A DNA stretch of 64,000 bases from Methylomonas sp. AM2-LC. GTDB taxonomy: Bacteria; Pseudomonadota; Gammaproteobacteria; Methylococcales; Methylomonadaceae. The DNA lies in assembly GCF_039904985.1 (NCBI RefSeq), contig NZ_CP157005.1, positions 4,359,501 to 4,423,500 of the forward strand, given 5' to 3'. Each line of letters begins with the position of its first letter. Positions within the stretch are counted from its first letter, which is position 1. Below the pieces are notes generated by a model. That model did not search any database. It was not told the origin of the DNA and saw nothing but the letters and a program-made list of their open reading frames with translations. Below are positions 8,012 through 36,915 of this stretch, piece by piece. Both the position numbers and the translations under genes were made by a program.

Positions 8012-9349
8012 ATGTTTGCTGGCGACACCATTGCAGCCATAGCTACACCGCCGGGTAACGGCGGTGTAGGCATTATTAGAATTTCCGGTCCTGCCGTTGC
8101 TGACATTGCCCATCACCTCACACGTAAAAAACTCATCCCCCGTTACGCGACATTCTGCAAGTTTCTAAATACAGACGGTAGCAGCATTGACTCCGGCCTA
8201 TTAATTTATTTCCCTGCACCTGCTTCGTTTACCGGCGAAGATGTACTGGAACTGCAAGGACATGGCGGTCGAGTGGTATTGGACATGTTGCTGCACCGTG
8301 TTATTGCAATCGGCGCCCGTCAAGCAAATCCAGGCGAATTTAGTCAACGAGCCTATCTAAACCATAAACTGGATCTGGCTCAAGCCGAAGCTATAGCCGA
8401 TCTAATTACTAGTAGCACCGAACAAGCAGTACGCTCTGCACAACAATCTTTGCAAGGCGTATTTTCCAAACTGATCAATGAACTGATAGACGAACTGATT
8501 GAATTACGCGTTTACATTGAAGCGGCAATAGACTTTGTTGACGAAGAAATTGATTTTCTGCACGACGGTGTGGTGGCTGGAAAAATCACACAACTACACA
8601 ATAAAGTCCTGAACATTCAAAGTACCGCCCAACAAGGGCGTCTGTTACATGATGGTATGACAGTGGTACTGGCAGGCAAACCTAATGCAGGCAAATCCAG
8701 CTTGCTTAATGCCTTGGCTGGACACGAAGCAGCTATCGTTACAGAAATTGCAGGCACCACCCGCGATGTATTACGGGAACACATTCAGCTAGATGGCATG
8801 CCCTTACACATTATCGACACAGCAGGCTTGCGTGACAGCGATAACCTGGTGGAACGAGAAGGCATGCGCCGCGCCCGTCAGGAAATTGAAAATGCCGATA
8901 AAGTACTACTGCTAATTGATAGTACTGATCCAGAAATCGACAGCACTTTTGATACGCTACCAAACAACATCAACATTACCCGAATTTTCAACAAAATAGA
9001 CAAATCCGGCAAAATAGCTCAGCGCATAGAAACGGAGCAAGGTACAGATATTTATTTATCGGTTAAAACCGGTGCAGGCATGGAACTCCTAAAACTGCAC
9101 CTTAAACAAAGTGTAGGTTTTAGCGAAACCGCTGATAGCGTTTTTGTTGCCCGCCGCAGACATCTACAGGCCTTACAACGTGCCAGCCTGGCACTGCAAA
9201 ACGCCGCTCAACAACTAGAAAATTATGCACCGGAACTGGTAGCAGAAGATCTACGCGAAGCACAAACAAGTCTAGCAGAAATAACGGGTGAATTTACTGC
9301 TGATGACTTGTTAGGTGAGATTTTTAGTAGTTTTTGTATTGGAAAGTAA
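8012..9349 (+). CDS. mnmE: tRNA uridine-5-carboxymethylaminomethyl GTPase MnmE
   Basis: With MnmG it modifies the wobble uridine (cmnm5U) of several tRNAs. 445 residues. The N-terminal tetrahydrofolate-binding domain begins [20 protein letters not shown]. The G domain has Walker A GKPNAGKS at 222-229, DTAGLRD and NKID. The C-terminal FCIGK motif (catalytic Cys at 443) closes the protein. The last codons lie inside an 18-bp direct repeat that recurs at 21057-21074, so the extreme 3' end has been replaced by an integrated element without changing the protein. Confidence 0.97.
9328..9345 (+). repeat. attL core (18-bp direct repeat) in mnmE 3' end
   Basis: TAGTTTTTGTATTGGAAA occurs here and again at 21057-21074 in the same orientation. 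It covers the codons for FCIGK at the mnmE end. Both copies are followed by bases that restore lysine plus TAA. The mnmE (trmE/thdF) 3' end is the known attachment site of SGI1-type islands, with an 18-bp core of closely similar sequence. Confidence 0.88.
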
Positions 9350-9457
9350 GCAAGTAAAACAAGCGCAAACAACATACAAACAAAAGCAAATATAACAAAG
9401 ACTTATAAAATTTTAAACGCTGTATATTGTCTAATTATTTCCTTTACTTTCCCATTT

Positions 9458-9507
9458 TTTACACCTATATTACACCTTTGGATTTTTTAGGTGTAAAAAG
9501 GGTGTAA
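9458..9507. promoter_or_regulatory. Left arm-type sites / int operator: four phased TTACACC motifs
   Basis: TTACACC occurs at 9459-9465 and 9470-9476, and its complement GGTGTAA at 9490-9496 and 9501-9507. Each pair is spaced 11 bases start to start, about one helical turn, and the two pairs face each other just before the integrase start codon. A matching pair lies beside attR. This fits integrase or excisionase arm sites, which could also regulate int. Confidence 0.6.
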
Positions 9508-9511
9508 GTAA

Positions 9512-10648
9512 ATGAAGATTACAATAGAAAAACGCACCAACAAAGATGGAGACAAGCAAAGCCTTAGGCTTGTCTATTGGCACGGCAGCTATACAGATTC
9601 AAACGGTAAAACCAAGCACACCCGAACCATAGAGCAGCTCGACCAATATCTATTTACTTCACCAAAGAGCAGACCGGAAAAACAGCACAATAAAGAAACC
9701 ACACAACTTATTGAAAATATCAAAGCCAAACGAATGACCGAAGCTGCCAGTGGTCAGCATGGTTTTACGGATACTACCAAGCTAAACGCTAGTTTCTATA
9801 GTTTCTTTTCACAGATCATGGAAACCAAAAAAACCAATAGCAATAGCAGTAACTATAGCGTGTGGAATGGCTGCCTTATTCAACTTAAAAAGCATGCACC
9901 AGATGCAAATTTAACTTTTGAGCAAATCACACCTGAATGGCTCGAAGGTGTACGAAAGTTTTTTGAAACCCAAGCAAAAACTAAAAGCGGTAACAATATC
10001 AGCAACGGCACCGCTCTTTCATATTTCAACAAGGTAAGAGCCGTTATTAATGCTGCTTACGCTAAAGGGATTATTATTCGTAATCCATTGCCGCAAGTTA
10101 AAGGAATTAAGGCTGAACAAACAAAACGAGTTTATTTAACAATTGAAGACGTGCGAAGCCTGGTTAAAACTGAATGCAGATATGATGTATTAAAACGTGC
10201 TTTTCTTTTCTCATGTTTAACAGGCTTAAGATGGAGTGATATAAATAAACTTGATTGGCCGGAAATAAGCCAACTTGATGGCGTTTATAGAATTACATTT
10301 AATCATAAAAAAACTGGCACATTACAATATTTAGACATAACACAACAGGCTTTTAGTCTATTGGGTGAACCAGCTAAGCAAGGCCGTGTTTTTGAGGGTT
10401 TGAAATATTCATCTTATGTCAATGTGGAATTATTACGCTGGTCAATGTCGGCAGGCATTAGCAAGCACGTTACCTTTCACACTGGCCGCCATACTTTTGC
10501 TGTAACACTGTTATGTAATGGAACGGATATTTATACACTTTCCAAGTTGCTTGGGCATAGCGAAGTTAAAACAACGCAGATTTACGCTGATATTATCGAC
10601 AGTGTAAAAAAAGAGGCTATGCACCGTATACCTGATATAGGTCTTTAA
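9512..10648 (+). CDS. int: Tyrosine recombinase (integrase)
   Basis: Site-specific recombinase that probably inserts and excises the element at mnmE. 378 residues: an N-terminal arm-binding region (about 1-75), a SAM-like core-binding domain (about 90-195), and a catalytic domain. The catalytic residues are all present: R240 in TGLRWSD, a lysine at K266/267, H323 and R326 in HTGRH, H349 in LLGHS, and Y358 in TQIYAD. The protein style resembles integrases common in Bacteroidetes conjugative elements, an impression only. It lies 166 bases inside attL with phased repeats in front of it. The next gene begins four bases after its stop, so they are probably co-transcribed. Confidence 0.93.
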   Translation: MKITIEKRTNKDGDKQSLRLVYWHGSYTDSNGKTKHTRTIEQLDQYLFTSPKSRPEKQHNKETTQLIENIKAKRMTEAASGQHGFTDTTKLNASFYSFFSQIMETKKTNSNSSNYSVWNGCLIQLKKHAPDANLTFEQITPEWLEGVRKFFETQAKTKSGNNISNGTALSYFNKVRAVINAAYAKGIIIRNPLPQVKGIKAEQTKRVYLTIEDVRSLVKTECRYDVLKRAFLFSCLTGLRWSDINKLDWPEISQLDGVYRITFNHKKTGTLQYLDITQQAFSLLGEPAKQGRVFEGLKYSSYVNVELLRWSMSAGISKHVTFHTGRHTFAVTLLCNGTDIYTLSKLLGHSEVKTTQIYADIIDSVKKEAMHRIPDIGL

Positions 10649-10652
10649 CAAT

Positions 10653-11810
10653 ATGGATATAAAATCCCAATATAAGTTTCCTATATGGGCACCAACAGCC
10701 CTTGTGGATGAATTCAGGTCATTAAAATTACTAGCAAGCGATTGCGAAAGCGGAGCGTATCGGTTTGATAATATTGATATTGATATTGATGATTTTTTAT
10801 CCTATATAAATACTGCCAATGATATGGCCGACATTCTTTTTAATTTGCTAACAAATCCAGACATGGAAGCCGCGTGGCGAGCTTTAGATAGACACCCCCA
10901 GAAACCCCGTGATATTTGTCCAAGCTCAGGTAGTAGCTATTATAATGAATTGAAATGGTTTGCTAATCACGGGGGATATACAGATAATTCAAGCAAAGGT
11001 GCTTTAGCCATTTGGCGATGTACTGAATTAGCCATTAGAGAGTTTTCTACTAAAATTTTAATAGCAAAAACTCCCGCAGAACGAAGAAGAAAACTTACGT
11101 CAATTATTGATAATGCAGAAGTTTTATTAGCTAATATTGAGGAAGATGATTTTGCAAAAAATATTAATGCCACACTAGTAGAAAAATACTTATCTCAAAA
11201 ATTCATTGAAAATCAAACCACTAATGAAATAAAACTTAGTCCATTGGAAATTTTATTTAATCATGCAGGTTCGCCAAGTCTTAAAAATGATATTTCTGAG
11301 GCTAGAAATGCAATGCGAGAAATTATTAATCATGAAGTAGATTCTAAGCTAAAGGAAAATAAAGATTATCAGAAATTTTTAGCAAATACTTCTGATGAAA
11401 ATTTTAATAGTATTGAAACACCACAAGAAATAAATGATTTTGAAGCTGAGCTTACAGAATTTGAAGATAATTTTTATAATCGTCCTTGGAATGAAAATCC
11501 TTTGATCTATAGACTTGTATATTGGGTATCGGTTGCCAAAAATATAAACACTTCCGAGCTTTTACGTTTTTTAATTGATTGTGTTCAACACGAGGCGAAT
11601 ACAGAGTTAGAAATTAAGCAACCAAACCGAGGCGAAACCTTGAAAAAGGCATTCTTAATACGCCGCCTTAGCGATCACATGATGTGGCTTTATGGTCAAC
11701 CGCTAGATGATGTTGTTGCCCGCATTGTCTCTGTTATTATCGGCATCCCTCTATCAAGAGATGATGTTAAACCATACCGCTTAGGGAATAAAAACAGCCG
11801 TATTAACTAA
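10653..11810 (+). CDS. Unknown element protein, 385 aa
   Basis: I do not recognise this protein. It is 385 residues, soluble, acidic and AT-rich in codon use. It has an N-terminal run of DNIDIDIDDF type and a hydrophobic helical C-terminal part containing DDVVARIVSVIIGIPLSRDD. It starts four bases downstream of the integrase stop, which ties it to int expression. It may be a regulator, an integration partner or cargo; the sequence does not decide. Confidence 0.72.
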   Translation: MDIKSQYKFPIWAPTALVDEFRSLKLLASDCESGAYRFDNIDIDIDDFLSYINTANDMADILFNLLTNPDMEAAWRALDRHPQKPRDICPSSGSSYYNELKWFANHGGYTDNSSKGALAIWRCTELAIREFSTKILIAKTPAERRRKLTSIIDNAEVLLANIEEDDFAKNINATLVEKYLSQKFIENQTTNEIKLSPLEILFNHAGSPSLKNDISEARNAMREIINHEVDSKLKENKDYQKFLANTSDENFNSIETPQEINDFEAELTEFEDNFYNRPWNENPLIYRLVYWVSVAKNINTSELLRFLIDCVQHEANTELEIKQPNRGETLKKAFLIRRLSDHMMWLYGQPLDDVVARIVSVIIGIPLSRDDVKPYRLGNKNSRIN

Positions 11811-11850
11811 GTTTCATCCCGTTACACCGCTATTTTTCCGCTTAATAATC

Positions 11851-11881
11851 TTGACTCCATAACTAAATTCAAAAGAGTCAA
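11851..11881. promoter_or_regulatory. Inverted repeat upstream of the HTH gene
   Basis: TTGACTC at 11851-11857 and GAGTCAA at 11875-11881 form a perfect 7-bp inverted repeat spaced 17 bases, ending five bases before the start codon at 11887. It could be an operator for the small DNA-binding protein or an mRNA hairpin over its ribosome binding site. Confidence 0.4.
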
Positions 11882-11886
11882 GAAAC

Positions 11887-12213
11887 ATGCAAACAATTAC
11901 CTTACAAGATATTTCTGACCGTCTGGCCGTGCTAACAACGGCTGTCTTAAGTAATAAAAACGCTCTGAACCTCGATGAAGCCGCGGCCTTTACAGGGTTA
12001 ACCGCTTCCACAATTTACAAGCTAACATCCACTCAACAAATCCCCCACTACAAGCCGCGCGGCAAAATGTTGTACTTTGATCGGGCAGAGCTTGAATCAT
12101 GGCTATTATCGCGGCGCGTTAAACCTATCGACGAAATCGAACAGGCCGCAACTAATCACATTGTAGGAACCAACACTAATCAACATAAATCAATTAGTGG
12201 GGGTGCTAAATGA
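11887..12213 (+). CDS. AlpA/excisionase-family helix-turn-helix protein
   Basis: 108 residues with a central HTH_17-type domain: ALNLDEAAAFTGLTASTIYK followed by IPHYKPRGKMLYFDRAELESW. This domain is typical of excisionases and small regulators in phages and integrative elements. It probably controls excision of the element or the primase-helicase operon that follows. Its stop overlaps the next start codon (ATGA). Confidence 0.85.
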   Translation: MQTITLQDISDRLAVLTTAVLSNKNALNLDEAAAFTGLTASTIYKLTSTQQIPHYKPRGKMLYFDRAELESWLLSRRVKPIDEIEQAATNHIVGTNTNQHKSISGGAK

Positions 12214-12491
12214 GTAAGTTTTCTACAATTGAAATTCCACCTAATTGGCGTGTTATTTATCGTTTTACTGATATGAAAACCAACACACTAAAATTTCAAG
12301 AATTACCTGTATTTGGCGTTATGTGTGTTGAAGAGTCTTCAGAAGTAAAAGCAATAACACCTATTGGTTTAATTTCTTGCAATTTTGCATTTATAGGTGA
12401 TGACGGGCGCGTTTATAGTTGTACTAAAATCAGAAAGGAATTTAACTCAATTCAAGCGTGGAAAGATTTTTTATCAGACAGGATAAGTTAA
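12210..12491 (+). CDS. Hypothetical element protein, 93 aa
   Basis: Unrecognised small soluble protein. Its ATG overlaps the preceding stop as ATGA, and its stop directly abuts the next start codon, so it belongs to a tight operon with the HTH and primase-like genes. The sequence is predicted to be rich in beta strand, with motifs such as IGDDGRVYSC. No function is proposed. Confidence 0.7.
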   Translation: MSKFSTIEIPPNWRVIYRFTDMKTNTLKFQELPVFGVMCVEESSEVKAITPIGLISCNFAFIGDDGRVYSCTKIRKEFNSIQAWKDFLSDRIS

Positions 12492-13424
12492 ATGACCTGG
12501 CGACATATAGAAGATACATGCCGCGCGGCCTGCCTGGTTGTTGGAGTCGAATTTAAAACCGTTCCCAGTGATGGCCGATGGCATACGGCTAATTTATTGG
12601 ATGATCATAAAGGCCGTAATGATGGTCGAATTAAGGTTTTTCCAGATCAACAAGGGGGAATTGTTTGGAACCACAAAACAGGTGATAGGCAAACATTTTT
12701 TATCAATAGTGTTGGTAAAGGTGTTTCGTTATCCCCTGAAGAACGGCGGCGTATTGAGACTGAACAAGCAAAACGGCAAGCTGAACAGTTAGATATCTTA
12801 GAAAAAGCTGCACAAAGGGCTGTTTCTATCTGGTCTGAAGCCTTGCCCGCGCCGGTTGATCATCCTTACTTAGTAAGGAAACAAATTAAGCCTTACTCGC
12901 TACGTGTTGGTAAGTGGAAACGGGTTATTAAAACCGATAGTGGACAACGTAAAACACTGATTATAAACAACTCGCTATTGCTGCCTTTGTTTAATGAGTC
13001 GGGCGCTATTCGTAGTATGCAGGCAATATTTCCTGAAACACACTCCGATTTTGGCCGTGATAAGGACTTTATACCTGGTGGCGGTTTAGCTGGTTTGTTC
13101 TGGTGGATTGGTGCAAAAACTGAAACTGTTTTGATAGCAGAGGGATTTGCTACAGGCGCAACGCTGCATGATGAAACAGGTTATCGCGTCTATTTGGCGT
13201 TTACGGCTAATAATTTATTAGCGGTTGGCCGGATTGTTAGAGAAAAACTGCCAGATGCATCAATTATTTTTTGCGCCGATAACGATAAAACAGCCGGTAA
13301 TCCCGGCTTAACTAAAGCTACAGAAGCGGCGGCCTATGTGGGTGGAAGCGTGGCCGTGCCGCCGATCTGGGGGGATTTTAACGAATATGCTATATTTTTA
13401 AAGGCTGGTAATCATGTCAGATAA
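12492..13424 (+). CDS. TOPRIM-domain primase-like protein
   Basis: 310 residues. The C-terminal half carries a TOPRIM fold: LIAEGFATGATL near residue 217 provides the conserved glutamate, and IIFCADNDKT near 255 the DxD pair. The middle contains DHPYLVRKQI and LLLPLFNESGAIRSMQAIFP, seen in TraC-like and P4-alpha-like primases of plasmids and satellites. The N-terminal part has no visible zinc finger. It likely primes replication of the element together with the ATPase encoded next, whose start overlaps by 11 bases. Confidence 0.82.
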   Translation: MTWRHIEDTCRAACLVVGVEFKTVPSDGRWHTANLLDDHKGRNDGRIKVFPDQQGGIVWNHKTGDRQTFFINSVGKGVSLSPEERRRIETEQAKRQAEQLDILEKAAQRAVSIWSEALPAPVDHPYLVRKQIKPYSLRVGKWKRVIKTDSGQRKTLIINNSLLLPLFNESGAIRSMQAIFPETHSDFGRDKDFIPGGGLAGLFWWIGAKTETVLIAEGFATGATLHDETGYRVYLAFTANNLLAVGRIVREKLPDASIIFCADNDKTAGNPGLTKATEAAAYVGGSVAVPPIWGDFNEYAIFLKAGNHVR

Positions 13425-15402
13425 TAATGAAAACAAGCGTGTTTTAGCCGTTGTTAATTCTGCCAAGAAAGCACCAAGCAAAGTAAAGGGTAGCAAGAGC
13501 AGTGGTGATGGCACAGAAAAAAACGAGGGCTTACGGTTTGGTCAATATCAAATAATCAATAACGCATTTAATCGCATAAAAACCAAAGAGGGCGGTATTG
13601 AAATTACAATTCCATTATGTAATTTTACTTGTAAAATTCTTGAAGAAATCTTTTTTGATAGCGGTCTAAGTGATGAAATTAAATTAAAAATTGAAGGAAT
13701 ACGGCAAGATGGCAAGCCATTATCGGCTTTTGATATACCGCTCAACCGCTTCACGTCTAGTCAAGGTGGTTGGCAAAACGACGCGTGGGGCATGTTGCCG
13801 CGGATTGCAACTGGTTCAACTGTAAAGGAAAGCTTAAGGGATTGCGTTCACCACTATTCACAATTAAACGGTGATATTCCTAGACGTACCGTATACAAAT
13901 ATATGGGATGGAAGAAAATTAATGATAAATGGCATTACTTGACACCAACAGGTGCAATAACTGAAAGCGGTCTGATTAATTCAATAAAGGTTGATTTAGG
14001 AACTGGTCACATGGGTTTGTATGGTTTACCAGCGCCTTTGACAGGAGAACCGCTTAAGCAGGCCGTAAATGATGCGTTAATGCTATTAAAAGTTTGTCCT
14101 AATAAGCAGCATATTGGCATTGCATTACTGGCCGCAATTGCCCGCGCCCCACTTGGCGAGTGTTTACATACAGATTTTGCTTTATGGCTACACGGTAAAT
14201 CAGGTTCTCGAAAATCAGCTTTAGCGTTTATTGCTCAAGGTTTTTTCGGTAAATTTGAGGATAAAGGATTTCCCGCAAATTGGGGCGATACAGGCACCGA
14301 CATTGAAGCAAAAGCCTATCAAGCAAAAGATGCATTCTATGTAATTGATGACTATAAGCCTATCGGTGGTGAAAGAGACGTTAAGGCGCTTGAAAAAATA
14401 GCAGACAGAATAATTAGGGGAACCGGAAACCAAAGCGGGCGCGGTCGGCGCGGCGCTGGAATGGAGGAAATGGCAGCTTATTATAATCGGTCAATGACGT
14501 TAATAACTGGTGAGGACGTGGCACCTGGTCAATCGTTGATTGGTAGGTTATTGGTTCTTGAAATGTCTCCTGGTGACATTGACCTTTCAATTTTAAATAA
14601 AATGCAAGATGCATCTAGGGCTGAAAAGCTTTCAGGCTTAATATCTGCTTATGTGCAATGGTTAGCGCCTAAATATGATCAACTTAAGCTTGATTTGCCC
14701 GTTATAGTTAAACAGTATAGAGATGCGGCAGACCGGGATAAGATTGCTACATCCCATTCAAGAGCACCTACCATTTATGCCAACATGGTTGCTAGTTCTG
14801 AAATTTTTCTGGAATTTCTTGAGGATATTGGCGTTATTAGTAGTGAGCAAAGCAATAATTTACTATCCAACTTTGAAATAAGTCTACAGGGATTACTTAA
14901 AGAACAAAATTCCTACCAAGCAGATCAAGATGAATGTAATCGGTTTATTGAGTTGTTAAGAGCCGCATTAAGTGGCGGGAATGCTCATATTTCCGACAGT
15001 AAAACCCAAGAAGAACCCGCAACAAGGCCGCATTCATTTGGTTGGATAAATATGGGCATTGGTGATGATAAAGTTTATCAACCTAAAGGGGATTTGATCG
15101 GGTGGTACGTTGCCCCAAAAAACAACCGGCCAAGTAAGATTTTCTTACAAAAGGACATGGCTTATCAGGCCGCCCAAAGATGCGCTACAACACAAAAGCA
15201 AACATTTCATAGCGGTAGTATGGCTTCTTTATGGCGGCTGTTACTTAATAAAGGTTGGATAGAACCAGATAATAGTGAGGGTAAGCCAAGGCCAGACCCG
15301 AAAAAACGTATTGATGGTGTTTATCATCGTGTTTTAGTTTTACGTGAAGATGTATTGTTTCCACCTGCCCCAGTGGTAAAAGATAGTGAAGACGACGATT
15401 AA
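13414..15402 (+). CDS. DUF927-type P-loop ATPase, putative replicative helicase
   Basis: 662 residues. The central domain has a Walker A GKSGSRKS at 261-268 and a Walker B-like FYVIDDYKP near 310, in the setting (LHTDFALWLHGKSGSRKSAL) typical of DUF927 ATPases found beside primases in plasmids, phage satellites and islands. The N-terminal 40 residues are low-complexity and basic. Overlap with the primase-like gene implies coupled translation and a joint role in element replication. The candidate origin begins directly after its stop codon. Confidence 0.83.
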   Translation: MSDNNENKRVLAVVNSAKKAPSKVKGSKSSGDGTEKNEGLRFGQYQIINNAFNRIKTKEGGIEITIPLCNFTCKILEEIFFDSGLSDEIKLKIEGIRQDGKPLSAFDIPLNRFTSSQGGWQNDAWGMLPRIATGSTVKESLRDCVHHYSQLNGDIPRRTVYKYMGWKKINDKWHYLTPTGAITESGLINSIKVDLGTGHMGLYGLPAPLTGEPLKQAVNDALMLLKVCPNKQHIGIALLAAIARAPLGECLHTDFALWLHGKSGSRKSALAFIAQGFFGKFEDKGFPANWGDTGTDIEAKAYQAKDAFYVIDDYKPIGGERDVKALEKIADRIIRGTGNQSGRGRRGAGMEEMAAYYNRSMTLITGEDVAPGQSLIGRLLVLEMSPGDIDLSILNKMQDASRAEKLSGLISAYVQWLAPKYDQLKLDLPVIVKQYRDAADRDKIATSHSRAPTIYANMVASSEIFLEFLEDIGVISSEQSNNLLSNFEISLQGLLKEQNSYQADQDECNRFIELLRAALSGGNAHISDSKTQEEPATRPHSFGWINMGIGDDKVYQPKGDLIGWYVAPKNNRPSKIFLQKDMAYQAAQRCATTQKQTFHSGSMASLWRLLLNKGWIEPDNSEGKPRPDPKKRIDGVYHRVLVLREDVLFPPAPVVKDSEDDD

Positions 15403-16150
15403 AACAAAATACCCCAATGTATTTTTGGGTATATTCCCAGTTTTTTACTGCACTTGGGTATACTCAAAGCCTTGCCAGCCCTAGTCTAGAGACGAATATA
15501 CCCAAAAACCCGTATTATTTTGAACACATACATACAATAGATTTTTAATTTGTTCTTTAGTCCTAGATTCTGAATGTTATATATATCTAATCCCCGCGCC
15601 CCGTCTCATATACGCCATAGGTTGGCTGGCTCTGTTGTTGCTATTAAGACTTAAAGCGGTATGGATTTAAATCCATACCTTACAAACTGGTAACGCACCC
15701 CCATGGGGGTATAAATCCCTAAAGCTAATTAATCACTTTGCGCTAGCCCAACCCCAGATAGTTACGGCAGTAATTAATATAAAAAAGCCCATATAGGGGG
15801 GGGTGGGTAAAAGTCTAAATTTGACACTGCCCTTTGCGTCGCCAGAGCTAAATTTTTACTAATGGGATTTTGAATACAAAAAACCAATTAATTAACAACA
15901 ACTTATCAATAAATAATGTAAATAATTTATTGCTTGTGGATAACTAAAATTCCATTTCTAGCATTAAATCAACACGTATACAGTAATGGTTAAGCCTCGC
16001 TTAAAAAAATAATTACTATATATATAAATATTAATAGGGATATTGGGTATATATAGCTGTATACCTTGCTACACTTAGCTTTGCGTATACCCAGAAATTA
16101 TTTTACTTATGGGTATATACCCAATTTTTTGGGTGTATTTTTGGATTTTG
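15403..16150. other. Candidate replication origin: TGGGTATA dyads plus DnaA box
   Basis: Non-coding, with AT-rich runs. TGGGTATA or its complement occurs at 15426, 15455, 15497 (complement), 16044, 16086 (complement), 16110 and 16116 (complement). The last two make a perfect 14-bp palindrome, TGGGTATATACCCA, at 16110-16123; 15426-15439 is a near palindrome. A consensus DnaA box lies between the two clusters. Placement directly downstream of primase and helicase genes suggests an origin or regulator-binding region. No experiment supports it yet. Confidence 0.55.
15935..15943 (-). promoter_or_regulatory. DnaA box TTATCCACA
   Basis: Perfect consensus DnaA box on the minus strand, flanked by AT-rich sequence (AATAATGTAAATAATTTATT) and by TGGGTATA dyads on both sides. 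Confidence 0.5.
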
Positions 16151-16169
16151 CAGCACTTAGGGCAATACG

Positions 16170-17220
16170 ACTAACATAAGCAGGTTGGCCGCCTTGCCCG
16201 GATCGACAGTCAGCCGGTATACCTGGTCAGCCTTGCCATGATCGGCAGCCAGTCGGTGCGCCTGGTCAGCCTTGCCCTGATCGACGGCCAGCACGTTACC
16301 TGGTCGGCCTTACCCATATCGGCAGCCAGCCGGTAAGTGTAGTCAGTCTGTGTATTTAGCAACCACAATTAAGCCGCCCACCTCTTTGGCGTAAATCGTT
16401 GGGTGCGGGGCATACTGAGCACCTTTGGGTAAGGAAAGTTATTTGATGAGTTGTGTTAACTAAAATCAACCCTGCCCAGATCGGCAGCCAGTCAGTGTAC
16501 CTGGTCAGCCTTGCCATGATCGGCAGCCAGTCAGTGTACCTGGTCAGCCTTGCCCTGATCGACAGTCAGCCGGTATACCTGGTCAGCCTTGCCATGATCG
16601 GCAGCCAGTCGGTGCGCCTGGTCAGCCTTGCCCTGATCGACGGCCAGCACGTTACCTGGTCGGCCTTACCCATATCGGCAGCCAGCCGGTAAGTGTAGTC
16701 AGTCTGTGTATTTAGCAACCACAATTAAGCCGCCCACCTCTTTGGCGTAAATCGTTGAGTGCGGGGCATACTGAGCACATTTGGGTAAGGAAAGTTATTT
16801 GATGAGTTGTGTTAACTAAAATCAACCCTGCCCAGATCGGCAGCCAGTCAGTGTACCTGGTCAGCCTTGCCCTGATCGACAGTCAGCCGGTATACCTGGT
16901 CAGCCTTGCCATGATCGGCAGCCAGTCGGTGCGCCTGGTCAGCCTTGCCCTGATCGACGGCCAGCACGTTACCTGGTCGGCCTTACCCATATCGGCAGCC
17001 AGCCGGTAAGTGTAGTCAGTCTGTGTATTTAGCAACCACAATTAAGCCGCCCACCTCTTTGGCGTAAATCGTTGGGTGCGGGGCATACTGAGCACCTTTG
17101 GGTAAGGAAAGTTATTTGATGAGTTGTGTTAACTAAAATCAACCCTGCCCAGATCGGCAGCCAGTCAGTGTACCTGGTCAGCCTTACCCAGATCGACAGC
17201 TAGTCGGTTTACCTGGACAA
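16170..17220 (+). repeat. 39-bp tandem repeats nested in 317/356-bp macro-repeats
   Basis: A 39-bp unit (core GATCGGCAGCCAGTC with CCTGGTCAGCCTTGCC) is repeated in blocks at about 16199-16333, 16479-16689, 16835-17006 and 17152-17220. Between blocks lies a 145-bp spacer, nearly identical at 16334, 16690 and 17007. Copies two and three of the whole unit start 356 and 317 bases apart; the difference is exactly one 39-bp unit. The unit length is a multiple of three, so open frames of 79 and 66 codons appear, but they lack good start signals and I do not call them genes. The role is unknown. Confidence 0.9.
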
Positions 17221-17228
17221 CTTAACTT

Positions 17229-17450
17229 ATGTTTACGGAAGCCTTGACAGCGTTACATACAGGGTTCAGAATTAAACCACCTTACAGCAGTAAGGACGGG
17301 ATTTGCACCCCGACAAACAAAGGCGGTAAAACGCCACTTTTTACAGTGGCTTTTTTGTGCGCGTCATTCTGCGTGGCTTACTTCCATGCTATCTGTTATG
17401 GCGTGGCTATTTGGGCAGCCGTAAGGTTGGCCGGTGCCTTTGTCCGGTAG
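17229..17450 (+). CDS. Possible Ash/Icd-like small protein, 73 aa
   Basis: An ATG-initiated frame with a hydrophobic C-terminal half (TPLFTVAFLCASFC, then YGVAIWAAVRLAGAFV). It recalls the small Ash/Icd-like frames often seen in phages and satellites before replication or regulatory genes. A terminator-like hairpin lies inside the frame at 17333-17356, so the region may instead be an RNA regulatory leader. Low confidence as a protein-coding gene. Confidence 0.35.
   Translation: MFTEALTALHTGFRIKPPYSSKDGICTPTNKGGKTPLFTVAFLCASFCVAYFHAICYGVAIWAAVRLAGAFVR
17333..17356 (+). terminator. Intrinsic terminator-like hairpin
   Basis: GCCACT (17333-17338) pairs with AGTGGC (17345-17350), followed by six T residues. 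It lies inside the possible 73-aa frame and upstream of the two small genes, so it could act as an attenuator. Confidence 0.5.
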
Positions 17451-17529
17451 TGCAAACCCACTTAGCCACGTCGCCACATTGATTTGCACCAATGGGCGGC
17501 GGTTGTTCACTTTACAAAGGAAAACCGAC

Positions 17530-17838
17530 ATGTCTAAACCTACCCAAATTTCAATTTTCAAAAAACTTAATGCAAGCGAAATAAGCTCTTTAGCGACATA
17601 TTTGGAAAAAATAGAACAATCTCAACGTGCAATTGCATCGTGCGCCAAATTACTTTACATGTTTCAGCTTGATGATGAATGCGGCGGCGAAATTCCGGAA
17701 AATGTTAAAACAGGTTATGTTAAAGGCGGGTTGTTAGAAGCAATACAACTAGCCGTTAATGAAATCGATTGTTTAATTGAAGATTTAGGAACACAAGCCC
17801 AATTTGCAAAAAAGTTAAATCTAGGCGGTGCACAATGA
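17530..17838 (+). CDS. Hypothetical element protein, 102 aa
   Basis: Unrecognised soluble, mostly helical protein with an acidic C-terminal half. I start it at ATG 17530 because AAAGGA lies just upstream at 17518-17523; the frame is open farther upstream (to about 17434) but without a convincing ribosome site. It overlaps the next gene as ATGA, so the two are a translationally coupled pair. Confidence 0.65.
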   Translation: MSKPTQISIFKKLNASEISSLATYLEKIEQSQRAIASCAKLLYMFQLDDECGGEIPENVKTGYVKGGLLEAIQLAVNEIDCLIEDLGTQAQFAKKLNLGGAQ

Positions 17839-18128
17839 TCGATTTATTATTTGATAAAGCAAAGGGTTGTTTATCGACTAAAGATATTAAAAGCCTTGCA
17901 AGTTATCCTGACTATATTGAGATGCAGTCAGAAAGCATAGCTGATACGTTGGATTTTGTAGCAATGGTTATTGCTGATGATTCCCGCAAAAATTTTATAA
18001 GCCTTGATAAAGTTGCTTCAATTTTATGGGGTTTGTCGTATCGAGCAAGGGATGTTGCCAAATTAACATCTATTGCTAGTGAAGCTGAATATTTGTTAAG
18101 CGTCTATAAAGACAACCGGTCATCCTGA
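17835..18128 (+). CDS. Hypothetical element protein, 97 aa
   Basis: Unrecognised small helical protein, translationally coupled to the preceding gene through an ATGA overlap. It is followed by a good bidirectional terminator. Paired small helical proteins in such elements can be toxin-antitoxin or regulatory pairs, but no family motif is visible, so this is only a thought. Confidence 0.62.
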   Translation: MIDLLFDKAKGCLSTKDIKSLASYPDYIEMQSESIADTLDFVAMVIADDSRKNFISLDKVASILWGLSYRARDVAKLTSIASEAEYLLSVYKDNRSS

Positions 18129-18152
18129 TTTAATCACTGTCGCTAATAAAAG

Positions 18153-18176
18153 GCCGGTATAGTGACCGGCTTTTTT
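18153..18176. terminator. Bidirectional intrinsic terminator
   Basis: GCCGGT (18153-18158) pairs with ACCGGC (18165-18170), followed by TTTTTT. On the opposite strand the stem is followed by CTTTTATT. It separates the two small plus-strand genes from the convergent recombinase gene and probably stops both. Confidence 0.8.
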
Positions 18177-18178
18177 AT

Positions 18179-18736
18179 TTAGGCTGAAATTATCTTGTAA
18201 AGGGTTGGTCTGCTAATACCATAATCTTTAGCTAGTTTGCTTTTGTCCTCACCTAGTGTTGCCTTGGCTTTGATTTCTGCGGTTTGTTCTGCGGTAAGTT
18301 TGGATGGTGCGCCTAGTTTTTTACCTTGTGCTTTGGCGGCCTCTATGCCCTCGCGTTGTCTTTCTTTGATTAAGGTTCTTTCAAATTCTGCAAACGCGCC
18401 TAACATTTGTAGCATAAGTGTTTGCATGGGTGAAGTGTTGGAAGCTTCAAAGGTTAGGTGTTCTTTGTAAAATTTAACTGTTACACCTTTTGCCGTTAAG
18501 GTTTCGATGATGGTTTGCAGGTCTTTTAAATTTCTGGCTAAACGGTCGATGCTATGAACGTGCAATATATCGCCGTCTCTAAGATGGTTTGTGCAGTTTG
18601 TCAGTTCTGGCCGGTTAGCATCTTTGCCGCTGGCCTTATCGGTAAATGTACGATCTAGTTGCACATCCACTAATTGGCGTTCTGTGTTTTGAGATGTTGA
18701 GCTTACTCTAATGTATCCAATATTTTGACCTTTCAT
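18179..18736 (-). CDS. Serine recombinase (resolvase/invertase family)
   Basis: 185 residues, the usual length of small Tn3-type resolvases and invertases. The catalytic serine is S12 in GYIRVSS. Supporting motifs are HSIDRLARNLKDL, GAFAEFERTLIKERQREGI, and a C-terminal HTH (SKLAKDYGISRPTLYKI). I start at ATG 18736; a GTG nine bases upstream is in frame. Three palindromic GTGTAAA-type sites lie directly upstream, as expected for a res site. It may resolve multimers of the circular element, or may be the remnant of a transposon. Confidence 0.92.
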   Translation of the reverse strand: MKGQNIGYIRVSSTSQNTERQLVDVQLDRTFTDKASGKDANRPELTNCTNHLRDGDILHVHSIDRLARNLKDLQTIIETLTAKGVTVKFYKEHLTFEASNTSPMQTLMLQMLGAFAEFERTLIKERQREGIEAAKAQGKKLGAPSKLTAEQTAEIKAKATLGEDKSKLAKDYGISRPTLYKIISA

Positions 18737-18753
18737 AGTAACCACCCATTGAT

Positions 18754-18883
18754 GTGTAAATAAATATCTTAGAGTAATGTTAACAAGTGTAAAATAAATG
18801 TCAAATTAAGTTTATTTTACACGGTAGAATGCGGGTTTGCTGGGTGTCTGCAAAGTGTAAATTAATGTATACATTATTTACAC
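18754..18883. repeat. Putative res site with three GTGTAAA subsites
   Basis: Subsite nearest the gene: GTGTAAATAAATATC at 18754 with a weak partner ending near 18786. Middle subsite: GTGTAAAATAAA (18787-18798) and TTTATTTTACAC (18811-18822), perfect 12-bp arms in a 36-bp element. Distal subsite: an imperfect 29-bp palindrome at 18855-18883, GTGTAAA... to ...TTTACAC. Three such sites upstream of a serine resolvase match the classical res layout. Confidence 0.7.
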
Positions 18884-19187
18884 TGATTTGCGGTAGTAGA
18901 TGATTTTCGTATAGAGTGACTTTGTTCAGTCTATAATAGTGCCTAGCTTAGACGCTAAATTATCCAACCTTATTTCTTTACAATATTGTTGGTGTTTCTT
19001 CGTTACTCAGCTTAGCTACTCTGATTATTCGCTGATGAGTTTGTAACATTTTTTCAGAATTGCACTATAAACGATTTAATTAAAGTAACTATTGCTACGC
19101 GAGGCCTTTCGGTGTGTATAAGTTAGCGTTTTATAGTAAATCATAAGACTGAATAAAAACTATTTATATATACAATAAAGGATTTTG
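18884..19187. other. Intergenic region before the cargo operon
   Basis: About 300 bases between the res-like region and the cargo operon. I see no gene. It is expected to hold the promoter of the downstream pair. Confidence 0.4.
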
Positions 19188-20141
19188 ATGCATTCGTTAT
19201 TACCATATTCGATAAGATGCTATAACCCATCATTAACTGGCGACAGTGACAGTAAAAACAAATATGCACTGCTAGATAAAATTGGGCAATTTGATGTTTA
19301 TAATTTACTAAAAAGCTACATTGATTCACATATAAATTTTAAAATTGTTGAAGAGCATAAGCAAGTTTTCAGATTCAATAGTGTAGTATTTAATTCTGAT
19401 AAAAGAATTATATATGGTTGGCTTCAAGTTGGCATGTATGGAATAAAAACCGATATAATAAATATAGATACTGGTGAAGTTGATTTTGAGAAAGCTGTTA
19501 ATAATGCTGAAGTTATAAATCATTTTGTATATTTTTATTTGCCTAAAAATTTAAATAAAGGGATAGCTCTTCTTCATGCTCATGGCTTGCATGGGGTAAA
19601 AACATTGTTTTTTGAATTATTTAGTAAATATTTTAATCAAGTAACTAAACTTAACCTCCAAATGAATCCTTTATCTTATGAAAAAGCGGTTAACAAATGG
19701 ATGGATGGTAATATTGTAGAAATCAGATTAAATAAGTTTGATGGTTGGAAAGATCGTACTGATGCGCTTTTCAATGGTGGGAGTAATGAACATTCACTTA
19801 TTATAAAATCTATTAAAAAAGGTAAGATTTCAAATGCTATTGGTCAATTTAAGGATTGCTTGAATAAAAACTCTGATACAGCAAAAGCAATAGAGGTGTT
19901 GAGTTCTCATTGCTCTCAAGTTAAGACTGTTGTAGCACTAGGAAAACAAACTCGTATTTTTACAGTTGGAAACTCAGAGGCTCATACGATGTACTCAATA
20001 GAAGCGCCCGACGAATTAAAATTGGTGGATGGCAATCCAGAGTATACAGCTATACAGGAATGGTGTGAGGAAATATCAACAGAATTTTTTAACGAATTGT
20101 TTCCGGGAGTTGTCATGTATCCAAGTATTGAGGTTCCATAA
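19188..20141 (+). CDS. Unknown cargo protein, 317 aa, first gene of a pair
   Basis: I do not recognise the family with certainty. The protein is soluble, with a central stretch reading NHFVYFYLPKNLNKGIAL and HAHGLHGVKTLFFELFS, a pattern I associate with uncharacterised proteins encoded beside small membrane proteins in defence-type cargo. ATG 19188 is preceded by AAAGGA at suitable spacing. Its stop shares a base with the next start codon (TAATG), so it is co-translated with a four-helix membrane protein. Very AT-rich codon use compared with chromosomal neighbours. Anti-phage or abortive-infection function is inference only. Size and pairing resemble the Kiwa (KwaA/KwaB) layout, but the gene order is reversed and no homology is shown. 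Confidence 0.75.
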   Translation: MHSLLPYSIRCYNPSLTGDSDSKNKYALLDKIGQFDVYNLLKSYIDSHINFKIVEEHKQVFRFNSVVFNSDKRIIYGWLQVGMYGIKTDIINIDTGEVDFEKAVNNAEVINHFVYFYLPKNLNKGIALLHAHGLHGVKTLFFELFSKYFNQVTKLNLQMNPLSYEKAVNKWMDGNIVEIRLNKFDGWKDRTDALFNGGSNEHSLIIKSIKKGKISNAIGQFKDCLNKNSDTAKAIEVLSSHCSQVKTVVALGKQTRIFTVGNSEAHTMYSIEAPDELKLVDGNPEYTAIQEWCEEISTEFFNELFPGVVMYPSIEVP

Positions 20142-20692
20142 TGAGTAGCAAACTAAACATAACAGAAATAATATTAGGACATTTCAAAACGTTAAAAAAT
20201 AGCAATGGCAATTTTTCGAAAGCAGATATTTCTGTTTTTTTTATAATGCCTCTGATATTTACTTTTTTTTCTATATATAGTTCATTCCGGTTAAATGATG
20301 ATATCACTTCGTTGCTAGTGAATTTTGGCTCTATATTTACTGCGCTTCTTTTATCAGTATTAGTCCTAGTTTATGATCAAGAATCAAAATTAGATGCCGT
20401 CAAAAATAGCGATCCATTTTTTACAATAAAAAAAGAGCTATTAAGGGAGCTTTATTACAATATAAGTTATTCAATTATTTGCTCATTATTACTTGTTCTT
20501 CTGTGCTTTATTCACTCAATTGTTGAATCGAAATGCTTTCTATTTAATGTTTTTGATATGACGTTATGTTTTAAATATGATGAGTACTTGGCAACTCCTT
20601 TAGTTATTTTTATTACTTCTAATTTATTTTTAAACATTATAATGATTGTTAAAAGAATGCATGCTATGTTGATATCACATCACGGGCCATAA
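20141..20692 (+). CDS. Four-helix membrane protein, second gene of cargo pair
   Basis: 183 residues. Four hydrophobic segments are visible at about residues 29-48, 57-79, 104-125 and 149-168, with a short charged cytosolic region (YDQESKLDAVKN) between the second and third. There is no signal peptide and no recognised catalytic motif. The start overlaps the stop of the 317-aa gene, so the two products are probably partners, for example a cytosolic sensor and a membrane effector. AT-rich, near attR, consistent with recently acquired cargo. Confidence 0.75.
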   Translation: MSSKLNITEIILGHFKTLKNSNGNFSKADISVFFIMPLIFTFFSIYSSFRLNDDITSLLVNFGSIFTALLLSVLVLVYDQESKLDAVKNSDPFFTIKKELLRELYYNISYSIICSLLLVLLCFIHSIVESKCFLFNVFDMTLCFKYDEYLATPLVIFITSNLFLNIIMIVKRMHAMLISHHGP

Positions 20693-21056
20693 TAGAATAA
20701 AAGTCATCATAACTAGCTATAAGTCACAATATAAACTACAAAATTATTTTTTTTATACAAATACCTGTGACGATTCTTCTTAATGTAGTAAGAACTTGCC
20801 CTGCAAGCTACTTACAATCTTTTGCTGGTACATCAAAGCCTTTGCCAAATAGTTTCTCTATTTCTGACCTAAAAACTAAAGCTGTAAAAGCTTGGGCATT
20901 AAAAAACCCATTGTTTTATAATCTTTCTCCTTCCCCCGCCCGTCCTAACCATCATGCCTTTAGACGCTGGCTGCGTATTCCATTCTATAATACCACTAAT
21001 ACTTACACCCAATTTACACCTATAAATATATAAATTATTGAAATATAAGTTATTTA
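20693..21056. other. Right end of the element, non-coding
   Basis: About 360 bases between the cargo pair and attR. A GTG-initiated open frame of 88 codons (20767-21033) has no recognisable features and I do not call it. The stretch contains the right arm-type sites. Confidence 0.5.
21003..21024. promoter_or_regulatory. Right arm-type sites: paired TTACACC
   Basis: TTACACC at 21003-21009 and 21014-21020, again 11 bases apart, 37 bases inside attR. The second lies in a 12-base stretch, TTTACACCTATA, that is identical to 9458-9469 at the left end. Confidence 0.6.
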
Positions 21057-21074
21057 TAGTTTTTGTATTGGAAA
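21057..21074 (+). repeat. attR core (18-bp direct repeat)
   Basis: Second copy of TAGTTTTTGTATTGGAAA. With the bases that follow it still reads AGT TTT TGT ATT GGA AAA TAA, that is SFCIGK stop, the leftover tail of the original mnmE. This marks the right boundary of the element. Confidence 0.88.
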
Positions 21075-21371
21075 ATAATACAGTAAAACAATAACATACA
21101 CCCTATTTATCCCTGTAATAATTTTTGTAGGGTCTTAGGTTCTGCTAACCAACAGACAACATATCATCCACGAATAAGTTTTAAATAAATAGCGATTAAG
21201 ATAGAATGTCGAAAAATAAATATTTTTTACTTTTGCTTATTCGACAGATGCGCCGCCCATTGGTTGGTAAACCCTACGACTCAAGAGTCCCACCTAAGCC
21301 AATCATCCCCACCATCACACCTGAGATTTTTTGACGGCTAATTGATAAGATTCAAGAAAGGGAAAATCCAC
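21075..21371. other. Intergenic region attR-chrA
   Basis: About 300 bases of original chromosomal sequence downstream of mnmE. No gene is evident. It includes the chrA leader with AAAGGGA about eight bases before the start codon. Confidence 0.4.
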
Positions 21372-35180: not shown

Positions 35181-35817
35181 TGCAGACCAGTACTTAAAGC
35201 TAAGCGGACATTTTCCCTTAAATGGTATGCGCTTTGCAATGCACGTAGCGCAATCAATAATGTTGATTATGACAATTCAAATTAATTTTCAGGCAGGATA
35301 GCTAAGTTCTAAGTAAAATAGTCGGCTTAAACCAAATTGGCAGTGACGTAAGAATATAAGGGTAAATATCGATAGGATGGGTCGAGGTTGGTTGGCGCAT
35401 TAATCGTGTAGGATTGTGTTAGCTTGCAAAGCGTAAGCCATTAATTGAAGCTTATAGTCTGTTGTTAAGCTGATTGCTGGGTTACCAATCAAAGCTTATA
35501 GCCTATTTTTAAGCTGACTGCTGGGTTACGGCCTTCGACGACGGATGCGGAAAACCGCATGTCCGTCGGACACCCATAGGTCTTTGATAATCGGGCGGTT
35601 TACTTATGCCCATGGTGGGTTAAGATGCGCACAGTGGCTTTTAAATATTTTAAATCGTACCAATTGGGCATCTAAACCCACCCTACGCACTTAGACATTA
35701 GCAAAAAAAATGAAGCATTATAAAATCGCAGTATTGGTCGGCGTACGCTTTTGAATTTATTAAATCGATGCCATTTGGTTTAGAGTTTTCCAATTTACTT
35801 ATAAATTAGCATAAAAA
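35181..35817. repeat. Repeat-rich intergenic region upstream of leuB
   Basis: Holds a direct repeat of about 39 bases (AAGCTTATAG... to ...GCTGGGTTAC near 35449 and 35493), partly palindromic GGTGGGTTAAGATGCGCAC versus CTAAACCCACCCTACGCAC sequences (35615-35690), and a copy of the leuB start region at 35697-35737. It contains no complete gene. Confidence 0.7.
35697..35737 (+). repeat. Duplicated 5' end of leuB
   Basis: From ATG 35710 onward 28 bases are identical to the true leuB start at 35818, and the upstream ATTAGCAAAAAAA also matches with one change. The copy is 108 bases upstream and its frame ends after 14 codons, ending VGVRF. Looks like a decayed tandem duplication. Confidence 0.85.
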
Positions 35818-36915
35818 ATGAAGCATTATAAAATCGCAGTATTGGCCGGTGACGGTATCGGCCCAGAAATCACCCAAGAAGCCATCAAAGTTCTTAAAGT
35901 TATTGAAGAACGTAATGATGTAGAATTTGAGCTATTGCCCGCCTTATTTGGTGCTTGTGCCTACTTCGAAACCGGCGATGCATTTCCGCAAGCCACTATA
36001 GATATTTGCGATCAGGCTGATGCTATACTGAAAGGTCCCATCGGTTTAAGTCATGAAGACTCGAAAAAAATCCCCATCGATAAACAGCCGGAACGCGGCG
36101 CACTTTTGCCTATGCGCCGTCGCTATAATACTTACGCCAACTTTCGCCCGGTTTCTCTGCCCAAAGCACTGGCACATTTTTCTCCGCTAAAAGCCGAAAT
36201 CATCGGTGAAGGCATTGACCTGATGATTGTGCGCGAACTGGTGGGTGGCCTGTATTTTGGTGAGAAAGAAATGGGGGTGAACGCTCAAGGCTTACGCTAT
36301 GTGCGCGAAACATTGGAATATGATGAAGAGCAAATCCGCCGCATTATGCACCAAGCGTTTAAATTAGCCAGTAAACGGCGTAAATTGCTGCACAATATTC
36401 ATAAAAGCAATGTGCTTAAATCCAGTGTACTCTGGAATGAAGTCATGGAAGAAGTGGCTATAGAATATCCAGACGTAAAGGTCATCAATTTTCTGGTTGA
36501 TGCAGCCGCCACTGCTTTGTGCTTAAAACCCACCCAGTTTGATGTGATGGTCATGGAAAATATGTTTGGCGATATTCTTAGTGATCAAGGTGGTGGCATA
36601 CTGGGTTCTTTAGGACTAATGCCATCTGCCTGTATCGGCCCGGATAAAGCTTATTACGAACCTTCACACGGTTCTGCACCGGATATCGCCGGAAAAAACA
36701 TCGCCAACCCTTATTCCATGATAGGCTCTGTTGCCATGATGTTGGAAAACAGCTTTGGCATGGAAGCTGAAGCCAAAAATGTATGGACAGCCATGCAAGA
36801 TGTGTTTGGTGATGGCTTCTCGACTGCCGACCTATCCAAACCCGGCAGCGGTGTAACCATGATCAGCACCGTAGAGTTTGGTGATAAAGTCGTTGAGAAA
36901 CTGCGAAAAATGTGA
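35818..36915 (+). CDS. leuB: 3-isopropylmalate dehydrogenase
   Basis: Oxidative decarboxylation of 3-isopropylmalate. 365 residues with the beta-decarboxylating dehydrogenase pattern: LAGDGIGPEITQEA, RRRYNTYANFRPV, NMFGDILSDQGGGILGSLGLMPSA, EPSHGSAPDIAGKNIANP. Sequence details (MRRRYNTYANFRP, EGIDLMIVRELVGGLYFG) fit LeuB rather than isocitrate dehydrogenase. It stands apart from leuCD, separated by the minus-strand epimerase and synthase genes. Confidence 0.93.
   Translation: MKHYKIAVLAGDGIGPEITQEAIKVLKVIEERNDVEFELLPALFGACAYFETGDAFPQATIDICDQADAILKGPIGLSHEDSKKIPIDKQPERGALLPMRRRYNTYANFRPVSLPKALAHFSPLKAEIIGEGIDLMIVRELVGGLYFGEKEMGVNAQGLRYVRETLEYDEEQIRRIMHQAFKLASKRRKLLHNIHKSNVLKSSVLWNEVMEEVAIEYPDVKVINFLVDAAATALCLKPTQFDVMVMENMFGDILSDQGGGILGSLGLMPSACIGPDKAYYEPSHGSAPDIAGKNIANPYSMIGSVAMMLENSFGMEAEAKNVWTAMQDVFGDGFSTADLSKPGSGVTMISTVEFGDKVVEKLRKM

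What the first reader, a model, noticed from the sequence alone, without database searches (positions are those of the whole stretch)
9328..21074. Integrative element with complete att cores in mnmE
An 18-bp direct repeat brackets an integrase-bearing segment of about 11.7 kb. Both repeat copies restore the FCIGK stop codons, so mnmE stays functional. The same site is used by SGI1-type islands, but the gene set here (unknown 385-aa gene, primase, DUF927 ATPase, resolvase, tandem repeats) has no transfer genes. It may be a small satellite or hitchhiker class.
Basis: partly seen in the sequence, partly recalled or inferred. Interest (0 to 1): 0.75.

Follow-up and report, generated by a model that had tools for sequence, protein, structure and literature searches.

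The report
Phage satellite integrated behind mnmE
An 11.7-kb piece of DNA inserted behind a housekeeping gene of a probable methane-eating bacterium looks like a parasite of phages: it carries a copy of the packaging start site of a known phage type, an antisense-RNA off-switch and its own resolvase, and related elements sit at many sites in sister species.

Summary
The exact 18-bp core (9328-9345, 21057-21074) brackets an 11,729-bp element behind an intact mnmE. Elements with 75-80% identical integrases sit behind mnmE in G007, G022 and G037, a fragment in G014. A conserved noncoding stretch (15796-15890) matches the HNH-TerS gap (cos region) of HK97-type phages: a profile built only from other satellites finds it in the window (E 2.9e-13), in a prophage of a same-genus genome (E 1.8e-20) and whole in four IMG/VR contigs. 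A P4-type C4 antisense RNA lies at 17394-17478; its loop pairs with targets on both sides, and the pairing covaries in 16 related elements (0 of 20,000 permutations). A serine resolvase has a conserved three-part res-like site. Most likely this is a cos-packaged, PICI-like phage satellite with modules of mixed kinship; it fails defining gene tests of P4-like satellites and PICMIs, and no SGI1-type transfer gene was found. Induction, packaging and transfer are inferred. The host genome has no PF03354 terminase gene, so such a helper would come from outside.

The parts
9328..9345 (+). attL core, last codons of mnmE
   Evidence: exact 18-bp repeat
21057..21074 (+). attR core
   Evidence: exact 18-bp repeat
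9459..9507 (.). left arm-type repeats (2x TTACACC, 2x GGTGTAA, 11-bp steps), candidate integrase arm sites
   Evidence: three sister elements have TTACCCC/GGGGTAA-type repeats at the same place
21003..21020 (.). right arm-type repeats (2x TTACACC)
   Evidence: inverted repeat I2
9512..10648 (+). tyrosine integrase
   Evidence: PF13102 and PF00589
10653..11810 (+). orf385, variable gene directly behind int
   Evidence: no family; one relative (29%) besides itself in a search of 5.8 billion proteins
11887..12213 (+). AlpA/excisionase-type HTH regulator
   Evidence: PF12728, TIGR01764, phrog_66
12210..12491 (+). small ORF (93 aa)
   Evidence: weak homologues in L043 and L055
12492..13424 (+). Toprim primase
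   Evidence: phrog_2249 E 1.9e-53; PF13362 below its cut-off
13414..15402 (+). replication ATPase/helicase (role inferred), DUF927-like only weakly
   Evidence: homologues in 23 of 101 genomes incl. own
15767..15792 (+). possible right arm of a decayed first cos copy
   Evidence: short match to L057, which has two copies (E 0.11, weak)
15796..15890 (+). cos-like packaging region
   Evidence: profile E 2.9e-13; pattern match 15800-15843
16149..17243 (+). 39-bp repeats within 317/356-bp units, function unknown
   Evidence: found in this genome only, of 101
17291..17356 (+). seqA-like (isrK) target with terminator-like hairpin
   Evidence: RF01394 28.4 bits, below its cut-off of 50
17394..17478 (+). 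C4 antisense RNA (boxes CCTTTGT 17437-17443 and GTGCAAA 17450-17456)
   Evidence: RF01695 59.7 bits, cut-off 45
17483..17520 (+). seqC-like target: TTTGCAC 17483-17489 and ACAAAGG (ribosome-binding region) 17514-17520
17530..17838 (+). orf102, gene predicted to be silenced by C4
   Evidence: no Pfam family
17835..18128 (+). orf97
18179..18745 (-). serine resolvase
   Evidence: PF00239; 77-89% identical relatives at 14 other places
18753..18883 (-). res-like site, three subsites (III 18753-18785, II 18787-18822, I 18855-18883)
   Evidence: conserved in 12 aligned loci incl. the window; subsites assigned by eye
19185..20141 (+). cargo orf318
   Evidence: phrog_15676; 55 homologues besides itself
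20141..20692 (+). cargo orf183, membrane-like by its hydrophobic stretches (by eye)
   Evidence: no NCBIfam or Pfam family; PADLOC only E 0.039

Best explanation
It is a phage satellite of PICI-like design. Int joined the attP of the circular element to attB at the 3' end of mnmE (recombination products shown by sequence). In the dormant state the C4 RNA pairs with a seqA-like site before it and a seqC-like site over the ribosome-binding region behind it, stopping expression of orf102/orf97 (pairing shown by covariation; effect inferred from P4 and P1). When an HK97-type cos phage enters, the element is excised (Int, AlpA-type factor) and replicated by its primase and ATPase into concatemers (inferred). 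The helper's HNH-TerS-TerL machine cuts at the element's cos copy and packs it into helper capsids, since no capsid or terminase gene was found in the element (site shown, use inferred). In the next cell the resolvase acting on res reduces multimers to monomers (gene and site shown, role inferred from the SGI1 resolvase).
For: att cores, recurrence and sites without integrase. A 49% identical integrase in a Salmonella phage record, among the two best hits in the phage records, also lies just behind an FCIGK-stop mnmE-type end. Arm-type repeats that differ together between sister elements. cos: the pattern was found at 14 places in 7 of 101 genomes: 11 in elements with the ATPase core, 2 in one decayed element, 1 in a prophage between HNH and TerS; the reversed control pattern gave 0. 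A profile from 12 satellite copies (window and phages excluded) finds the window, the prophage, L039, L040 and L051 and, of 51 IMG/VR TerL loci, 5 at E<1e-6, 4 of them whole and between genes that Pfam names HNH and Terminase_4. Prophage genes named by Pfam. In phages AS1 and pAN the linear records end 32 and 34 bases after the same kind of motif. C4 in 17 of 21 ATPase loci examined; covariation 0 of 20,000 permutations. Resolvase and res-like site. Sister elements: HK97 capsid plus ClpP in L057, proteases in L045 and L053, tape measure in L047.
Against: No induction, packaging or transfer data. The host genome has no TerL of PF03354 and the matching TerL is in 1 of 101 relatives. The cos profile hits 10 of 21 related elements at E<1e-3, six of which supplied seeds; 11 gave no such hit, and the mnmE element of G022 is among these. 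The right part of the window's cos differs from the phages'. Only 5 of 51 related TerL loci gave the motif at E<1e-6. The isrK match is below its cut-off. In single rows of the covariation test the own partner is strictly best in only 6 (downstream) and 2 (upstream) of 16, best or tied in 13 and 12.
Confidence: 0.84

Rival explanations
1. An integrative mobilizable element of the SGI1 kind, moved by a conjugative plasmid; the shared mnmE site and the resolvase reflect that way of life.
For: Same target gene end as SGI1-related elements, many of which carry a resolvase (PMC9035990 and PMC12217951, passages).
Against: No relaxase or mobilization family among the element proteins scanned with Pfam. 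Sister cores with other integrases sit at tRNA genes. A cos-like region and C4 RNA are present. oriT and AcaCD boxes were not searched.
Confidence: 0.05
2. A self-replicating integrative plasmid that is not packaged: the stretch at 15796-15890 is a replication origin shared with phages, not a packaging site.
For: It lies just downstream of the replication genes, where PICI origins are reported (PMC10111431, passages), in a long intergenic region.
Against: In the five phages or prophages with a whole match (L201, L212, L213, L214, L219) the stretch lies between HNH and TerS; the records of AS1 and pAN end 32 and 34 bases after the same kind of motif, if those ends are the true chromosome ends.
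Confidence: 0.07
3. A remnant of a full prophage that lost its late genes.
For: Integrase, primase and C4 RNA also occur in prophages; distant ATPase relatives (28-31%) lie in viral contigs of 18-59 kb.
Against: The reading frames of int, alpA-type gene, primase, ATPase and resolvase are whole; a similar compact plan recurs at putative sizes of 7.9-13.7 kb in 21 measured elements and in the mnmE elements of G007 and G022.
Confidence: 0.04

Closest known systems
Gram-negative PICI, e.g. EcCICFT073 and HE-PICIs (PMC6092414, PMC6739421, PMC10111431; passages read)
   Same: int, AlpA and primase; about 10-20 kb; cos sites (two in EcCICFT073); CI/seqA-type immunity RNA in some; phage late genes in some; own capsid genes not needed
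   Different: C4 lies after the replication genes in the window; the ATPase's nearer relatives (37% or more) found in named genomes are Methylococcales; resolvase in 13 of 21 loci, whereas in PMC10111431 a resolvase marked one odd group; no Rpp or Bro gene recognised
P4-like satellites (PMC8628076, passages; CI/seqA/seqC: PMC4825925, passages)
   Same: integrase, AlpA-type gene, primase/helicase function, CI (C4) RNA with seqA and seqC
   Different: no psu, delta, epsilon or alpha Pfam family among the proteins scanned; the cos-like region is of HNH/TerS phages
PICMI (PMC10803314, abstract and passages)
   Same: int, AlpA-type gene and primase, no capsid genes, a gene directly behind int (iolg there, orf385 here, alike by position only)
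   Different: site is mnmE, not fis; primase families differ; C4 RNA and resolvase present
SGI1-related elements (PMC9035990, PMC12217951, passages)
   Same: 3' end of trmE/mnmE, 18-bp att, resolvase
   Different: no mobilization genes found here; much smaller (SGI1 42.4 kb, abstract of PMC3285670 as listed)

Membership tests
Gram-negative PICI | int, alpA and primase co-oriented in a 10-20 kb element with att sites | tested here: met
Gram-negative PICI | packaging site of a helper phage, no own large terminase | tested here: met
   cos-like region; no terminase family among the proteins scanned; use of the site not tested
Gram-negative PICI | zone order integration, Bro/immunity RNA, replication, late | tested here: not met
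   C4 lies behind the replication genes in the window; before them in L039, L040, L053, L054, L056
Gram-negative PICI | helper-dependent induction and transfer | not testable with these tools
   needs phage and strain
P4-like satellite | psu, delta, sid, epsilon, alpha | tested here: not met
   no Pfam family of psu, delta, epsilon or alpha among the proteins scanned; sid needs a custom profile (PMC8628076) and was not tested
PICMI | DUF3987/DUF5906 primase and fis site | tested here: not met
   no such Pfam match; site is mnmE
SGI1-related element | integration at the 3' end of trmE/mnmE | tested here: met
   definition
SGI1-related element | mobilization genes and conjugative helper | tested here: not met
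   no such family by Pfam; oriT and AcaCD boxes not searched; integrase not compared with SGI1 Int
C4 antisense RNA (RF01695) | covariance model above cut-off | tested here: met
   59.7 bits, cut-off 45
C4 antisense RNA (RF01695) | complementary target over the next gene's ribosome-binding region | tested here: met
Tn3-type resolution system | serine resolvase with a three-subsite res next to its gene | tested here: inconclusive
   resolvase family and conserved inverted-repeat blocks; binding and recombination not tested

The most novel reading that the evidence does not exclude
A satellite lineage of methanotrophs that travels as concatemers cut by the terminases of HK97-type phages and carries its own resolvase and res site to take the concatemers apart after delivery, with immunity groups set by a two-box antisense barcode (16 different box pairs in 16 elements) and with integrase, late genes and cargo exchanged around a core of primase, ATPase, cos, C4 RNA and resolvase.
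Probability: 0.45. Interest if true: 0.75.

Novelty: new variant of a known kind. Interest (0 to 1): 0.62.

Why it matters
It moves an anonymous island of a methanotroph into the phage-satellite world and names a likely helper type, which makes it directly testable. The two-box covariation gives a sequence rule for predicting which co-resident satellites exclude each other, as in P4 immunity. A resolvase kept by a cos satellite would suggest how multimers packed into full-size capsids are reduced on arrival. The mix of integrases around one core shows how satellites change chromosomal sites.

Tried and rejected
Size quantization: integer multiples of element length at about 35-38 kb looked frequent in the first 14 elements (9 of 14, read), but of 7 further sizes none fits (L039, L055, L147, L148, L150, L151, L152); the range was chosen after seeing the first sizes. 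Dropped. No end repeat was found for L054 and L056 and only a weak one for L044.

The tandem repeats as a shared origin: they occur only in this genome of 101, and two relatives carry other, 47-bp repeats in that slot; unexplained.

DUF927 label: weak. PDB sequence searches with the ATPase and orf318 alignments gave nothing useful. PADLOC gave no match for orf318 and one at E 0.039 for orf183. An exact cos pattern in viral contigs found nothing twice; the profile did on TerL loci. A DNA search of the phage collection with the cos stretch gave four matches with E of 1 or more. L288 holds a resolvase without the satellite core.

Rows left out: of 30 relatives' ATPase matches, I fetched 20 as long stretches; the other 10 were mostly weaker or partial. 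L044 was left out of the covariation test because its C4 region is the same as that of L043. L049 was left out of the res alignment (short gene). Two gaps in the box count: L043 lacks the upstream box-1 pairing and L045 has only 5 nt downstream.

Full report
What is there. The 18-bp core occurs exactly twice in the window, at 9328 and 21057, inside a longer 56-nt, 77% similarity. mnmE ends normally at 9349 and both copies read FCIGK*. Between the cores lie integrase, orf385, an AlpA-type regulator, orf93, Toprim primase, a large ATPase, a long intergenic region, orf102 and orf97, a serine resolvase on the minus strand, and a cargo pair.

Host and relatives. The window is 64 kb of a 5.39-Mb genome in 3 contigs. 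Of 42 named ATPase loci, 16 are Methylococcales (Methylomonas, Methylovulum, Methylobacter, Methylocaldum and unnamed Methylococcaceae), and these include all 13 with 37% identity or more; the rest are distant. The ATPase has relatives in 23 of 101 genomes, the own one included.

Integration. The nearest integrases are in G007 (78%), G022 (80%) and G037 (75%), with a fragment in G014 (78%); all four lie directly behind mnmE. A 59% relative in G027 lies on a contig other than that of mnmE. G007 and G022 have second, imperfect cores (3 and 5 mismatches in 18 between left and right copy), giving elements of 11.76 and 10.62 kb; G037 is cut by the contig end. A Salmonella phage record with a 49% identical integrase has an mnmE-type end about 220 bases before the integrase match, so this integrase clade may keep to this site. 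Arm-type repeats are TTACACC/GGTGTAA at both ends of the window's element, TTACCCC/GGGGTAA-type at both ends in G022 and at the left end in G007 and G037; the right end of G007 is less regular and that of G037 is not in hand. This joint change suits integrase binding sites; it is inference.

The family. Of the 20 relatives' ATPase loci fetched as long stretches plus the window (21), 17 have a C4 RNA and 13 a resolvase of the window's cluster, one of them shortened. The same core is found with other integrases at tRNA genes for Thr, Arg, Leu and others. G022 holds two loci with the same C4 region and closely similar core but different integrases (L043 and L044). Putative sizes, from end repeats of varying quality, are 7.9-13.7 kb in 21 elements.

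cos. A noncoding stretch downstream of the ATPase is conserved between elements. A pattern for it was found at 14 places in 7 of 101 genomes, none for the reversed control: 11 in elements of this family, two in a decayed element (L200), and one in G031 in a prophage, overlapping the end of an HNH gene and just before TerS, followed by TerL, portal, protease and HK97 capsid. A profile made from 12 satellite copies finds the window at E 2.9e-13 and the prophage at E 1.8e-20 in 1.3 Mb. In 51 IMG/VR loci that hold a related TerL it finds 5 at E<1e-6; L212, L213, L214 and L219 have it between genes that Pfam names HNH and Terminase_4, while L218 is cut by the contig start. E. coli phage mEp235 has a similar G-run and GGGTCAAAA between HNH and TerS, though its profile match is weak (E 0.19). 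The linear records of AS1 and pAN end 32 and 34 bases after such a motif. That the satellites' GCGTCGCC block marks the cutting point is inference. L051, at mnmE in G007, has another variant there, nearest by eye to phage L213, which could mean another helper; the mnmE element of G022 gave no match.

C4 RNA. RF01695 matches at 59.7 bits; an isrK-type (seqA) match below cut-off lies before it. P4 CI RNA pairs with seqA and seqC (PMC4825925, passages), and C4 and isrK hits are reported for PICIs (PMC10111431, passages), so this mechanism is known. In 16 elements the longest perfect pairing of the C4 loop region with its own downstream and upstream targets averages 7.9 and 7.3 nt, against 5.7 when partners are swapped; 0 of 20,000 permutations reached either value; the own partner is best or tied in 13 and 12 of 16 rows, strictly best in 6 and 2. 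The elements are related, so the permutation count is not a strict probability. Taken box by box, 62 of 64 pairings reach 7 nt or more. There are 10 types of box 1, 6 of box 2 and 16 different pairs in 16 elements (from boxes copied out).

Resolvase. It is 77-89% identical at 14 other places in the 101 genomes; 11 of these lie in the fetched ATPase loci, one (L289) beside an ATPase fragment, one (L287) at a contig end beside other genes of the family, and one (L288) without the core. Upstream of the gene three blocks of TGTAAA-type inverted repeats are conserved in 12 loci, and conservation stops after the third. In SGI1 a restored resolvase system removes multimers (PMC12217951, passages). 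EcCICFT073 lacks capsid genes and is packed into full-size capsids (PMC6092414, passages), and PICMI as a concatemer (PMC10803314, abstract and passages). Joining these gives the model of unpacking by resolution; it is a hypothesis.

Late region and cargo. Ten late-region proteins of sister elements were scanned with PADLOC and Pfam, and ten proteins, one of them from the window, with PHROGs: an HK97 capsid gene with ClpP (L057), S49, SDH or ClpP-type proteases (L045, L053), a tape-measure protein (L047), a small protein with a PADLOC 1TM-TIR match and a phrog_10276 protein (L043), an SLT domain (L054) and TPR repeats (L051); L057's 181-aa protein had one weak PHROG match (E 0.0089), and the rest had none. 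The window's cargo is orf318/orf183. orf318 has 55 homologues besides itself, and two Pseudomonas phage records hold one. Its function is unknown; phage interference is a guess.

Literature. No listed paper describes such elements in methanotrophs: of 47 papers ten were listed, none with the word methanotroph; one search listed 15 of 1,134, none with Methylomonas; one search found two papers with four of its five terms. Most subscription papers are not held.

Verdict. A real element, most likely a cos-packaged PICI-like satellite with P4-type RNA control and its own resolution system. Site, family, RNA pairing and cos-like region are shown by sequence; induction, packaging, immunity and resolution are inferred.

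Noticed in passing
window 16149-17243: GC-rich 39-bp repeats inside 317/356-bp units, unique to this genome among 101 searched; function unexplained.
   Followed up: partly
window 21075-21105: The right flank resembles the element's left inner end (56-nt repeat at 77%); G018 (L075) and G030 (L072) show similar sequence behind mnmE without an integrase in the fetched flank: scars or extended att similarity.
   Followed up: partly
window 35705-35737 and 35813-35845: Exact 33-bp direct repeat with 108-bp spacing outside the element.
   Followed up: no
G000:C1 245170, 451508, 833304: Three equal-scoring weak integrase matches, perhaps a repeated element in the host genome.
   Followed up: no
G000:C3 52124, 71153, 91311: Three equal-scoring serine recombinase matches on one contig, perhaps a repeated unit.
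   Followed up: no
L043 and L044 (G022): Two elements in one genome share the C4 region and a closely similar core but have different integrases and sites.
   Followed up: partly
L200 9843-10080 (G036): Decayed element keeping two cos-like copies 193 bp apart.
   Followed up: no
L290 1108-2471: Unannotated Salmonella phage record: 49% identical integrase just behind an mnmE-type end, perhaps a related island in enterobacteria.
   Followed up: partly
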